Of a stretch of DNA of 64,000 bases, positions 3,302-36,783 are shown in pieces. The notes beneath the pieces were generated by a model. That model made no database searches. It had not been told where the DNA came from and worked only from the letters and a program-made list of their open reading frames with translations. The position numbers were made by a program, and so were the translations under genes. How positions within the stretch are numbered: the first letter of the stretch is position 1; each line of letters opens with the position of its first letter. This DNA is from Ectobacillus funiculus (GTDB taxonomy: Bacteria > Bacillota > Bacilli > Bacillales > Bacillaceae_G). The DNA is taken from the NCBI RefSeq assembly GCF_004138295.1, contig NZ_SCFM01000023.1:1-64000 (forward strand), read 5' to 3'.

Positions 3302-3322
3302 ACACGTTGTTGAAAAAAGAAG

Positions 3323-3369
3323 TAGTCCATAAAAAAATCTCGAGGTTTTCCGAGATTTTTTATGGACTA
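3323..3369. repeat. Long inverted repeat, probable IS1182 end or bidirectional terminator
   Basis: Arms TAGTCCATAAAAAAATCTCG and CGAGATTTTTTATGGACTA pair over about 19 bp with one bulge and are followed by T-rich sequence. It lies 15 bp beyond the stop codon of the transposase remnant on the minus strand, so it may be the right end of that IS as well as a terminator. Confidence 0.55.
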
Positions 3370-3383
3370 TCTTTTTTCTTTTT

Positions 3384-3735
3384 TTAGTAACTTAAATCTA
3401 TGCCAGATTCGCGCAGCAAACGCAATTTGGTCCGTTTTTTCAAGTTTTGTAATATAGCGGTCATCAAAACTTGGATTGTAACTTTCTGAACTCCACGGTA
3501 GCGTGCGAAGCGAAACCTGTGAAGTTCTTTGCTTTCTGCAAAACTTCTTTCAACAGTAGAAGGTCGAACAGAACGCAGAACTTTCCCCCGTGGGGAAAGA
3601 CGCTGAGAATGCAGACGATCATATACATTTTGATGCACGGAAATACGAAGGACTCGATCCCTTTTCCTAGCATAAGGGCAGCCTTCGCAGCTTCCCTTTG
3701 GGGGACGGTACTCGTGATACCCTTGTCGTGTGGAA
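3384..3735 (-). pseudogene. IS1182-family transposase, C-terminal remnant
   Basis: The minus strand encodes GYHEYR, CEGCPYA, a segment ending LSPRGKVL, then TVERSFAESKELHRFRFARY and VQKVTIQVLMTAILQNLKK. This is the C-terminal half of IS1182-group DDE transposases, including the last catalytic glutamate region. The N-terminal two thirds are missing. At about 3735 the homology stops and an IS110 fragment on the other strand begins, so two unrelated elements have been joined by a deletion or nested insertion. Confidence 0.8.
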
Positions 3736-31730: not shown

Positions 31731-31940
31731 TTAAGGACGTCCAATCCATTCAGAATATAAGCCACTCCCATTGCAGTTAGAGCATTCATAGGGAGAGATA
31801 TAAACATCGTTGAATGCAGGAGCAACGGAAATCATCCCTTTCCCTCTGCAATCAGGACATTTGCCTAGTGATTGCATTTCAGACTTATGTTTTTCATATC
31901 TTTGGACCTGCCAGTTATAGAATACGCTAAAGAATCCCAT
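31731..31940 (-). CDS. Small DnaJ-like zinc-ribbon protein
   Basis: 69 residues with two CxxCxGxG-type knuckles, CPDCRGKG and CSNCNGSG, which resemble half of the DnaJ cysteine-rich zinc domain. GAGGTGAG precedes the ATG. Similar short proteins are widespread and uncharacterised in Bacillales; some database entries mislabel them as methionine aminopeptidase. Function unknown. Confidence 0.75.
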   Translation of the reverse strand: MGFFSVFYNWQVQRYEKHKSEMQSLGKCPDCRGKGMISVAPAFNDVYISPYECSNCNGSGLYSEWIGRP

Positions 31941-32054
31941 TTACTCACCTCGAATCATTTTTGTTAGTTTATGGAGAAATGTAGTGTTTTAGTCAGTTTT
32001 AGATTGACAGAAATAGTTTAGCGGGGCATAAAAACAGTTTAATTAAAATGAATC

Positions 32055-32094
32055 AAATCTACTCGTTTCTAACTTTTCTTTGAGTAGATTTTTT
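32055..32094 (+). terminator. Hairpin upstream of the tnpB element
   Basis: AAATCTACTC / GAGTAGATTT stem with a long loop and a T run. Confidence 0.5.
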
Positions 32095-32134
32095 ATTGTT
32101 GAAATTTTGGTAAAAATACAATAAAATGGAATTA

Positions 32135-32148
32135 AGAACACGTGTTCT
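32135..32148. promoter_or_regulatory. Perfect 14-bp palindrome, LexA-box-like, upstream of tnpB
   Basis: AGAACACGTGTTCT is self-complementary and fits the Bacillus LexA core GAAC-N4-GTTC. It lies 21 bp before the tnpB ATG. It may instead be part of the left end of the insertion sequence. Confidence 0.4.
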
Positions 32149-32169
32149 AAATCGAAAGGAGGTGAAACT

Positions 32170-33591
32170 ATGAGTCTAACGTATAATAAAAAAGTCCCTG
32201 TATGTTTTACAAGAGAAGAAGAATATATGTTGGATGGGCAAAGTAAAATATGTAACTGGCTTTACAATCAGTTATTGACTGCTTGTCAGAAAGATTAGAA
32301 GGAAAATAATAATGAGTTGAAATTATTAGAAGGTCGAAATCTGCGCAATTATGGTGTTTCATTAAAGGGGAAACATCTTTTTTTAAACACTGTATTTTCA
32401 TCTGTTTTAAAAGACCCTGCGGAACGACTTTTAAAAGCATTTACATCATTTTTTAAAGGAAATACAGGTTATCCTCATTTTAGAAGCTGGAAGAAAAAGT
32501 GGTATAGTTTAATCTATGACGAGCCTAATAAGGGATGGGAACTTCAGCGTGATGGTACGAAACTTTCCATTTCGTTAGGAGACATACCTGGATTACCAAA
32601 AGAAAAAAGGAAAAGGAATCCTTCTATTATTGGTACATTAGGCGAAACGGTTGTTTTAAAAGAAGGCGAAGTGTTTAAAACACTTCGGATTTGTAAGCAA
32701 CAAGGAAATAAGTTTTACGCTATTTTTACAGTGGAACGTTGTTCTCAAGAAGAATTGGCATGTAAAGGGGTGATGTCTGCCTATCGAAAAGAATGTAATC
32801 TAGCGAAAAAAGAAAAAAGAAAGAAATCTGAAAAACCCAAGTTGGAAGAAAAACAAATGGAGATTCCAAAAGATATTTCTTGGATTGCTTTGGACCCCAA
32901 CCATAAGAATTTCTTTGTAGGAGTTGATCATGAAGGGAACTCTATTGAATTTACAAAGTTGCAAATGATAAAGTATTGGGATACAACCATTGATAAGTTA
33001 AAATCTCTTCGTGATGTTTGCGAAAAAAATTATAAAAAAAGAAAAACAAAGCATGGAAGTTCTTATACTGTACATAGCACTAGGTGGAATCGAGTAAACA
33101 AAGCATTAAACATTGCGTATCATAAACGTCGAGAACAAATAAAGACGGCATTGTATTCCATTGCACATGAATTATATCGAAGATATGACCTTGTTATCAT
33201 TGGTGACTACACTCCCACGAATGGAACAACTCGTTTTGACAACATGAAACGAAGTATGTTGAACCAAGAAAAAATAGGTGAGTTCCGAAAAATCTTGGAA
33301 TGGGTAGCTGCTAAATTACAAAAACACTATATCATGGTCAACGAACGAAACACTACGAAAGAGTGCTGTATTTGTGGTCATATGAAGAAAAAAGACCCCG
33401 GTGTCAGAAACTTTACATGTGAAAAGTGTGAAACAATATTAAACAGGGATACGAATTCAGCTGTAAATATCGGAAAAAAGGCTGGTTATTTCCTTGATAT
33501 CAACGCATACAAACATAAACTCAATCATTTTTCTTTTACGAGTTACGCTGTATTTGGAAGAAAAATTTCTTGGATGTCAAATCACTTATAA
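32170..33591 (+). pseudogene. tnpB: TnpB (IS200/IS605 OrfB) nuclease gene with in-frame amber codon
   Basis: RNA-guided nuclease of the TnpB family. AAAGGAGGTG precedes ATG 32170; the frame meets TAG at 32296 (codon 43) and continues in the same phase to 33591, so a single nonsense change interrupts a 473-codon gene. A TTG at 32317 could restart translation but would lose the first 49 residues. RuvC-I Asp is in the IALDPNHKN segment (codon 32893), the last Asp in LNRDTNSAVNI (33448), and the zinc finger is CCICG/CEKC. The usual RuvC-II ED is replaced by GD (IIGDYTP, 33202), while a Glu 47 residues on (VNERNTTKECC, 33343) occupies the position used by Fanzor-like proteins. No tnpA is adjacent. 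Confidence 0.85.
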
Positions 33592-33815
33592 TTGCCTCGC
33601 TTAGGCTAGTTAGGAGCATCAAAGATGCGTTTAGACTAACTATACTGATTCTGGAACAAGCGTCCCCATTTGGGCGTATGAAAAGGCTCATTTGTCTTTT
33701 ACACAGACTGCCACCAAAACCACGCACTGCTTCAGGTTTTGAGTGGGGAGAAAGAAAATGCTACGGTGCGATAAACCTATTCAATTTTGCGGAATTAAGT
33801 AGGTTTGAGTAGAAT
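33592..33815 (+). ncRNA. Probable omega-RNA / right-end region of the tnpB element
   Basis: TnpB elements make a guide RNA from the 3' end of the gene and the right end. This non-coding stretch has compact stems: TAGTTAG ... CTAACTA enclosing GCATC-AAA-GATGC (about 33607-33640), and GCGTCC-CCATTT-GGGCG (about 33659-33676). A 9-bp GGAATTAAG occurs near both flanks (32129 and 33792). RNA boundaries are inferred, not seen. Confidence 0.45.
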
Positions 33816-33850
33816 TTCTAGAGCGGTTATTATTTTAGGAATAGCTATTC

Positions 33851-36402: not shown

Positions 36403-36783
36403 TTATATCATACCTGGTATGCCCATGCCAGGGAAACCACCCATACCCATGCCAGGGAAACCACCCATACCCATGCTAGGGAAACCGCCCATACCCATGC
36501 CAGGGAAACCGCCCATACCCATGCCAGGGAAACCGCCCATACCCATGCCAGGGAAACCACCCATGCCCATGCCAGGGAAACCACCCATGCCCATGCCAGG
36601 GAAACCGCCCATACCCATGCCAGGGAAACCGCCCATGCCCATGCCAGGGAAACCGCCCATGCCCATGCCAGGGAAACCGCCCATGCCCATGCCAGGGAAG
36701 CCGCCCATGCCCATGCCAGGGAAGCCGCCCATGCCCATGCCCATGCCAGGGAAGCCAATAATACGTTTAGAATTTAATGCCAT
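36403..36783 (-). CDS. Tandem-repeat GFPGMGMG protein, possible spore-surface protein
   Basis: 126 residues: a nine-residue head (MALNSKRII), then 14 units built on GFPGMGMG (one reads GFPSMGMG, the first is two residues longer), ending GIPGMI. AGTAGGTG lies five bases before the ATG, which supports this frame over the two other open frames across the repeat. The protein is almost only Gly, Met, Phe and Pro. Such glycine/methionine-rich low-complexity proteins are found among spore coat, exosporium and crystal-associated proteins of Bacillales; assignment here is inference. The 24-bp DNA unit is prone to copy-number change. Confidence 0.65.
   Translation of the reverse strand: MALNSKRIIGFPGMGMGMGGFPGMGMGGFPGMGMGGFPGMGMGGFPGMGMGGFPGMGMGGFPGMGMGGFPGMGMGGFPGMGMGGFPGMGMGGFPGMGMGGFPSMGMGGFPGMGMGGFPGMGIPGMI

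What the first reader, a model, noticed from the sequence alone, without database searches (positions are those of the whole stretch)
32170..33591. Fanzor-like rearranged RuvC active site in a bacterial TnpB, broken by one amber codon
The canonical RuvC-II glutamate (ED) is replaced by GD at 33202-33207 (IIGDYTP), while a glutamate lies 47 residues on, just before the zinc finger (VNERNTTKECC, 33343). Fanzor nucleases and a subset of TnpBs are reported to use such an alternative glutamate about 45 residues away. The gene is otherwise full length but has TAG at codon 43 in the same frame.
Basis: partly seen in the sequence, partly recalled or inferred. Interest (0 to 1): 0.66.

Follow-up and report, generated by a model that had tools for sequence, protein, structure and literature searches.

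The report
Fanzor-style TnpB gene with amber stop
A transposon gene for an RNA-guided DNA-cutting enzyme in this bacterium belongs to a rare family whose cutting site is laid out as in Fanzor, the eukaryotic version of the enzyme, but this copy is interrupted by a single stop codon.

Summary
Window 32170-33591 is a full-length TnpB frame with one TAG at codon 43. The canonical RuvC-II glutamate is Gly345 (GDYTP); Glu392 lies 47 residues on, seven before the first zinc-finger cysteine. This marks a clade, not a lesion: 14 of 14 clade rows have GD plus that Glu, while 16 of 16 canonical rows have the usual Glu and 0 of 16 the alternative one (rows without a readable zinc finger were dropped). 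The clade gets 100/99 support with the two glutamate columns masked. RuvC-I reads D[PQ]N, not the DPG of Fanzors and pro-Fanzors.

The window copy lacks tnpA; the searches found only fragments of the family elsewhere in the genome.

Best reading: a recently broken, tnpA-less IS607-type element whose ancestor made an RNA-guided nuclease with a D-E(alt)-D site. Alternative-glutamate TnpBs are published; the D[PQ]N clade looks like an undescribed variant that published motif searches mostly miss. Kinship to Fanzors is unresolved and activity is untested.

The parts
32023..32024 (.). GG at the left end (presumed IS607 crossover dinucleotide)
   Evidence: LE alignment: GG in 9 of 9 copies; IS607 inserts at GG with GG at its ends (PMC6188088, passages)
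32025..32095 (+). left end (LE) with inverted repeat AATCTACTC...GAGTAGATT
   Evidence: 94% identical copy at C78, weaker copies at C60, C63, C114 of the same genome, and in Niallia/Oceanobacillus elements
32170..33591 (+). tnpB reading frame (473 codons plus stop), interrupted
   Evidence: PF07282 61.5 bits (cut-off 26.3), NF040570 guided_TnpB 101.1 bits (cut-off 100), both on the 424-aa part
32296..32298 (+). in-frame TAG, codon 43
   Evidence: five of five close relatives carry a sense codon here
32317..32319 (+). in-frame TTG, possible restart; AAGGA 13 nt upstream
   Evidence: inference only
32893..32895 (+). RuvC-I aspartate D242 (DPNHKN)
33202..33207 (+). GD at the canonical RuvC-II glutamate place (G345, D346)
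33343..33345 (+). alternative glutamate E392
   Evidence: aligned with the Glu of mimivirus L79 (PDB 9b0l)
33364..33429 (+). zinc finger C399, C402, C417, C420
33448..33450 (+). RuvC-III aspartate D427
33590..33826 (+). predicted guide-RNA scaffold (omega/reRNA-like), ending at the right end
   Evidence: z-score -2.47, 1 of 200 shuffles as stable; 15 pairs changed on both sides against 4-8 with slid partners; no Rfam family
33804..33826 (+). right end (RE) ...GAGTAGAATTTCTAGAGCGG with GG at 33825-33826
   Evidence: GCGG end in window and L011-L014, C78, L015, L016, L018, L019, L043

Best explanation
The window holds a non-autonomous (tnpA-less) IS607-type element of about 1.8 kb (32025-33826) carrying tnpB and a downstream guide-RNA scaffold. 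Its TnpB belongs to a clade in which the RuvC catalytic triad is D242-E392-D427: the second acid has moved from the strand at residue 345 to the loop between the last RuvC strand and the zinc finger, as in Fanzors. Working copies are expected to bind the RNA transcribed through the right end, take flanking DNA as guide, and cut the empty donor site left when TnpA excises the element, so that repair restores it (established for TnpB systems; inferred here). This copy was recently interrupted by the amber codon; with no tnpA of its own and only fragments of the family found elsewhere in the genome, the system is most likely decaying. Shown: frame, motif conservation, clade, element ends, RNA covariation, tnpA linkage in relatives. 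Inferred: catalysis by E392, guide use, homing, loss of function.
For: Motifs 14 of 14 in the clade against 0 of 16 canonical rows; D242, G345, E392 and D427 invariant; clade 100/99 with or without the glutamate columns. In the AlphaFold2 model of the Niallia relative, E392 directly follows strand 386-391 and D427 starts helix 426-437, the places given for Fanzor (PMC11423790, passages); best structural matches are TnpBs, with the mimivirus Fanzor2 9b0l also high. IS607 TnpA by NF033518 upstream in L018 and L019, and a TnpA match in 8 of 19 loci scanned, including fragments. GG at 9 of 9 left ends and GCGG at the right ends read. RNA covariation. dN/dS of the window gene to four relatives 0.08-0.14, as among the others 0.06-0.17, so the lesion looks recent. 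TAG ends 10 of 35 long frames in the window, so it is not reassigned.
Against: No activity data. dS is saturated for most pairs, so dN/dS is rough. No empty site was found, so the exact GG crossover is not proven. Four of the five AlphaFold2 models had mean pLDDT of only 59-64 (best 76.0, pTM 0.51) and structural rmsd to PDB chains is about 9-10 A. RNA covariation rests on 5 sequences, two of them close. The split between alternative and canonical Glu rows is only 81/94, and in the masked tree L79 leaves the alternative group. L017, a clade relative, has lost the site.
Confidence: 0.8

Rival explanations
1. The clade is nuclease-dead: the E-to-G change at 345 abolished cutting and the protein works as an RNA-guided DNA binder, like TldR or Cas12m.
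For: The canonical glutamate is absent in 14 of 14 clade rows. Nuclease-dead TnpB relatives and Cas12m with a non-canonical triad that binds without cutting are known (PMC13418256 and PMC10442227, search listing with abstracts).
Against: D242, E392 and D427 are all invariant and E392 sits at the published Ealt place, E six residues before CxxC (PMC10711439); a dead clade need not keep all three acids. The Cas12m chains aligned lack a glutamate there. The genes are tied to transposon ends and TnpA.
Confidence: 0.1
2. The TAG is a sequencing or assembly error and the gene is intact.
For: It is the only lesion in 473 codons, no frameshift; the assembly has 146 contigs; dN/dS looks constrained.
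Against: Single in-frame TAGs also occur in another TnpB of this genome (L007) and in a Niallia clade copy (L012, codon 241), so such decay is ordinary; the genome carries several fragments of the family.
Confidence: 0.2
3. The product is still made, by amber read-through or by restart at TTG 32317.
For: In-frame TTG with AAGGA 13 nt upstream; the frame stays open for 424 codons.
Against: TAG is an ordinary stop here (10 of 35 long frames). A restart would drop 49 residues, covering strand 3-13 and helix 15-45 of the relative's model. The spacing is long for a ribosome-binding site (general knowledge).
Confidence: 0.08
4. An ordinary canonical TnpB in which D346 of GD takes the place of the missing glutamate.
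For: D346 is invariant.
Against: Canonical rows often have the same D after their E (ED) and still keep the E; the clade groups apart from the canonical rows and has gained an invariant E at -7.
Confidence: 0.04

Closest known systems
Ealt TnpBs and cyanobacterial pro-Fanzors (Yoon et al. 2023, PMC10711439; passages and section 23 read)
   Same: Glutamate moved to six residues before CxxC; IS607 context; same overall domain order.
   Different: RuvC-I is DPN (13 of 14) or DQN (1 of 14), not DPG or D-hydrophobic-G; hosts found are Bacillota, Chloroflexota, a Cupriavidus plasmid and a viral contig; the published DPG expression matches 0 of 14 and the D{P}G one 2 of 14.
Fanzor2 of mimivirus (L79, PDB 9b0l)
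   Same: Aligned alternative glutamate (VNEYLTTKTC), zinc finger, fold (Z 15.5).
   Different: Viral and longer (520 aa); its fragment did not group firmly with the clade. Its RuvC-I was not seen here.
Canonical IS607 TnpB such as ISFba1 (PDB 8iaz, PMC11061315; passages read)
   Same: IS607 TnpB with downstream reRNA and RuvC nuclease; strong fold match (Z 16.4).
   Different: ISFba1 is reported with the active site D194, E290, D371; no Rfam match to the clade RNA was found.
ISDra2 TnpB (PDB 8h1j, 8exa)
   Same: Best fold match (8h1j, Z 19.3); RuvC plus zinc finger.
   Different: IS200/IS605 element (recalled); in the alignments it has no Glu at the alternative place.

Membership tests
TnpB (RNA-guided endonuclease family) | Profile match above curated cut-off | tested here: met
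   NF040570 101.1 bits against 100; PF07282 61.5 against 26.3. PF01385 did not reach its cut-off (12.5 against 30.5).
TnpB (RNA-guided endonuclease family) | Zinc finger and three RuvC acids | tested here: met
   D242, E392 (alternative place), D427 and four cysteines
TnpB (RNA-guided endonuclease family) | RNA-guided DNA cleavage | not testable with these tools
   Needs a bench assay
Canonical (Ecan) TnpB | Glutamate about 50 residues before the zinc finger | tested here: not met
   G345 in its place, 14 of 14 clade rows
Ealt TnpB | Glutamate six residues before CxxC | tested here: met
   E392; 14 of 14 clade rows
Fanzor / pro-Fanzor | DPG at RuvC-I together with Ealt | tested here: not met
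   DPN or DQN in 14 of 14 rows; DPG expression 0 of 14
Fanzor / pro-Fanzor | Phylogenetic grouping with Fanzors | tested here: inconclusive
   Only a 159-aa Fanzor2 fragment was available; no cyanobacterial pro-Fanzor was retrieved
IS607 family | Serine-recombinase TnpA (NF033518) in the element | tested here: not met
   None in the window element; present upstream of tnpB in relatives L018 and L019 and matched in 8 of 19 loci scanned. The window element is thus a tnpA-less derivative.
IS607 family | GG at both termini, insertion at GG without duplication | tested here: inconclusive
   GG at the ends of all copies read, but no empty site found
RAGATH-18 reRNA | Rfam covariance model match | tested here: inconclusive
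   No match at gathering threshold in 10 loci and only weak chance-like hits in the window; that Rfam 15 holds this family is recalled
TldR (nuclease-dead TnpB) | Loss of RuvC acids | tested here: not met
   All three acids invariant in the 9-row alignment if E392 is counted

The most novel reading that the evidence does not exclude
A third lineage of alternative-glutamate TnpBs, marked by D[PQ]N[HQ]KN at RuvC-I, lives in IS607 elements of Bacillota, Chloroflexota, Betaproteobacteria and viruses. It would mean that the Fanzor-type active site combined with an IS607 transposon is not a cyanobacterial speciality, and it may be a bacterial sister or parallel of the line that led to Fanzors.
Probability: 0.35. 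Interest if true: 0.6.

Novelty: new variant of a known kind. Interest (0 to 1): 0.42.

Why it matters
TnpB is the ancestor of Cas12, and the moved glutamate is one of the two published fingerprints of Fanzors; it has been proposed to reduce collateral ssDNA cutting (PMC10711439). A bacterial clade that has the moved glutamate and the IS607 context but a different RuvC-I motif would let one separate which change came first, and offers compact intact enzymes for test. The window copy itself is only a relic.

Tried and rejected
Empty site: G001-G003 of the same genus were searched with the window locus and two relic loci; alignments stop before the element, so no joined site could be read. Genus searches around the Niallia copies were not possible. 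Mimivirus L79 fragment against IMG/VR: no relative. L79 fragment against plasmids: 1964 records, 40 listed, four fetched, no Ealt row among these four (L044, L045 and L047; L046 read by eye). Rfam: nothing useful. Code reassignment: rejected. Paper searches 'TnpB' with 'DPN motif' gave 0 papers; a search for the 2023 TnpB/Cas12 classification paper (recalled, PNAS) did not list it among 15 of 84, so it may describe this clade. The pdb_via list does not rank Fanzors above TnpBs; the fold does not decide kinship.

Rows dropped: one search kept frames over 230 aa with a matching zinc finger, so L006, L007, L008, L017, L039, L046, L060, L067, L073 and L074 gave no row (L041 repeats L019). L039 was put back for the tree, but not. 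Of the nine other TnpB matches in the genome, six are canonical, L007 is canonical by eye, and two fragments (L006, L008) were not classified.

Full report
Observation. The frame 32170-33591 encodes a full-length TnpB with one TAG at codon 43. Its open part (424 aa from TTG 32317) matches guided_TnpB NF040570 at 101.1 bits (cut-off 100) and the Cas12f1-like TNB domain PF07282. RuvC-I is DPNHKN (D242), the canonical RuvC-II glutamate is G345 in GDYTP, E392 precedes the zinc finger, and RuvC-III is D427.

Is the motif meaningful? A pattern-based scan of 84,980 species genomes gave nine relatives: three in Niallia endozanthoxylica (66-68%), one in Oceanobacillus (63%), three at 44-46% in Paucisalibacillus, Bacillus and Anaerobacillus, one in Epulopiscium and one in an Anaerolineaceae MAG. 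Further members came from a Cupriavidus plasmid, one IMG/VR contig and unnamed Bacillota genomes. The family is rare: 3 of 397 genomes of the order at E <= 1e-40 and 4 of 398 of the phylum at E <= 1e-25, the window genome counted in both, and 1 of 100 nearest relatives, the window genome itself. Among the 32 rows, 14 of 14 clade rows have GD plus the alternative Glu; 16 of 16 canonical rows have the canonical Glu and none the alternative one; the two archaeal rows of L037 have GK plus the alternative Glu. The Epulopiscium copy L017 is degenerate and has lost the site; it was not counted.

Phylogeny. With all columns the clade gets 100/99 and the alternative-versus-canonical split 81/94 (34 rows). 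With both glutamate columns masked the clade stays at 100/99 and joins the archaeal alternative-Glu TnpBs at 90/96 (33 rows). The mimivirus L79 fragment, the only Fanzor sequence at hand, then falls with two canonical rows (86/88) on a long branch; holding all 17 alternative-Glu rows together is not rejected (AU p 0.219). So the window protein is no ordinary TnpB, but Fanzor kinship is open.

Structure. AlphaFold2 on L011 with nine aligned sequences reached mean pLDDT 76.0 and pTM 0.51; the other four models had 59-64. E392 directly follows strand 386-391, in the loop before the zinc finger, and D427 starts a helix; the Fanzor structure paper puts the catalytic Glu in the loop between the fifth strand and the TNB domain and the second Asp on the helix (PMC11423790, passages). 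Best matches are ISDra2 TnpB (8h1j, Z 19.3), ISFba1 TnpB (8iaz, 16.4) and mimivirus Fanzor2 (9b0l, 15.5), all at rmsd of about 9-10 A over the whole chain.

The element. Aligned ends show GG at 9 of 9 left ends and GCGG at the right ends of the window, L011-L014, the C78 relic and L015, L016, L018, L019 and L043. IS607 elements carry GG at their ends and insert at GG (PMC6188088, passages). TnpA of the IS607 family (NF033518) lies upstream of tnpB in L018 and, in pieces, in L019; tblastn with the L018 TnpA matches 8 of 19 loci (L016, L018, L019, L036, L060, L071, L072, L073), some only as fragments, and not the window, L011-L015, L017, L040 or L043. The window element is therefore a tnpA-less derivative. 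No empty site was found.

The RNA. The 237 nt from the stop codon to the right end fold at -68.4 kcal/mol (z -2.47; 1 of 200 shuffles as stable). In five sequences the consensus structure has 15 pairs changed on both sides, against a shuffled mean of 6.9 (0 of 500 as high) and 4-8 with slid partners. No Rfam family matches.

State in this genome. The window copy is the only long member found. Relics are an element of about 80 bp at C78 in which LE runs straight into RE, a join that lies in the repeat TTTGAGTAGA shared by both ends; LE pieces at C60 (with the first codons of tnpB), C63 and C114; and at C1 a TnpA fragment followed by remnants of a tnpB of the L015/L019 type. A scan for IS607 TnpA gave four matches, only the C1 fragment above cut-off. 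Five of five close relatives have a sense codon at the TAG position; one of them, Niallia copy L012, has its own single TAG at codon 241, and L007, a canonical TnpB of this genome, also has one. dN/dS to four relatives is 0.08-0.14, undefined for L043, with dS saturated in most pairs. TAG is a normal stop: it ends 10 of 35 long frames in the window.

Literature. Yoon et al. (PMC10711439; passages, section 23) describe Ealt TnpBs, split them into D-hydrophobic-G and DPG groups, and confine pro-Fanzors to cyanobacteria. Their two expressions match 0 of 14 (DPG) and 2 of 14 (D{P}G, through a chance DDxG downstream) of our rows, while 14 of 14 fit the same expression with D[PQ]N. A search for 'DPN motif' with TnpB found no paper in the held library. 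The 2023 classification of TnpB and Cas12 (recalled) was not available.

Verdict. The setting is an IS607-type element in decay. The interest lies in the clade, not in this copy.

Noticed in passing
L031 (G000:C78) about 3319-3397, minus strand: An element of about 80 bp consisting of LE joined directly to RE; both ends share TTTGAGTAGA, so it looks like an internal deletion between short direct repeats.
   Followed up: partly
L012, tnpB codon 241: A Niallia copy of the same clade carries its own single in-frame TAG, directly before the RuvC-I aspartate.
   Followed up: partly
L007 (G000:C56): A canonical TnpB in the same genome also carries one internal TAG; its close paralogue L010 is open there.
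   Followed up: no
L060 (G000:C1:19755 and downstream): IS607 TnpA fragment followed by remnants of an L015/L019-type tnpB: a second subtype of the family has also decayed in this genome.
   Followed up: partly
window 31742-31973: A small cysteine-rich frame on the minus strand (DnaJ central domain, below cut-off) with a 75% DNA match elsewhere in the genome (C82) and a 69% match in G003.
   Followed up: no
L015, L016, L018, L019 downstream of tnpB: In these relatives the right end follows the stop codon by only about 25-65 nt, so any guide RNA would have to overlap the coding sequence, unlike the long 3' RNA of the window type.
   Followed up: no
window 36403-36783, minus strand: Highly repetitive GFPGMGMG reading frame, possibly a spore-coat-like protein.
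   Followed up: no
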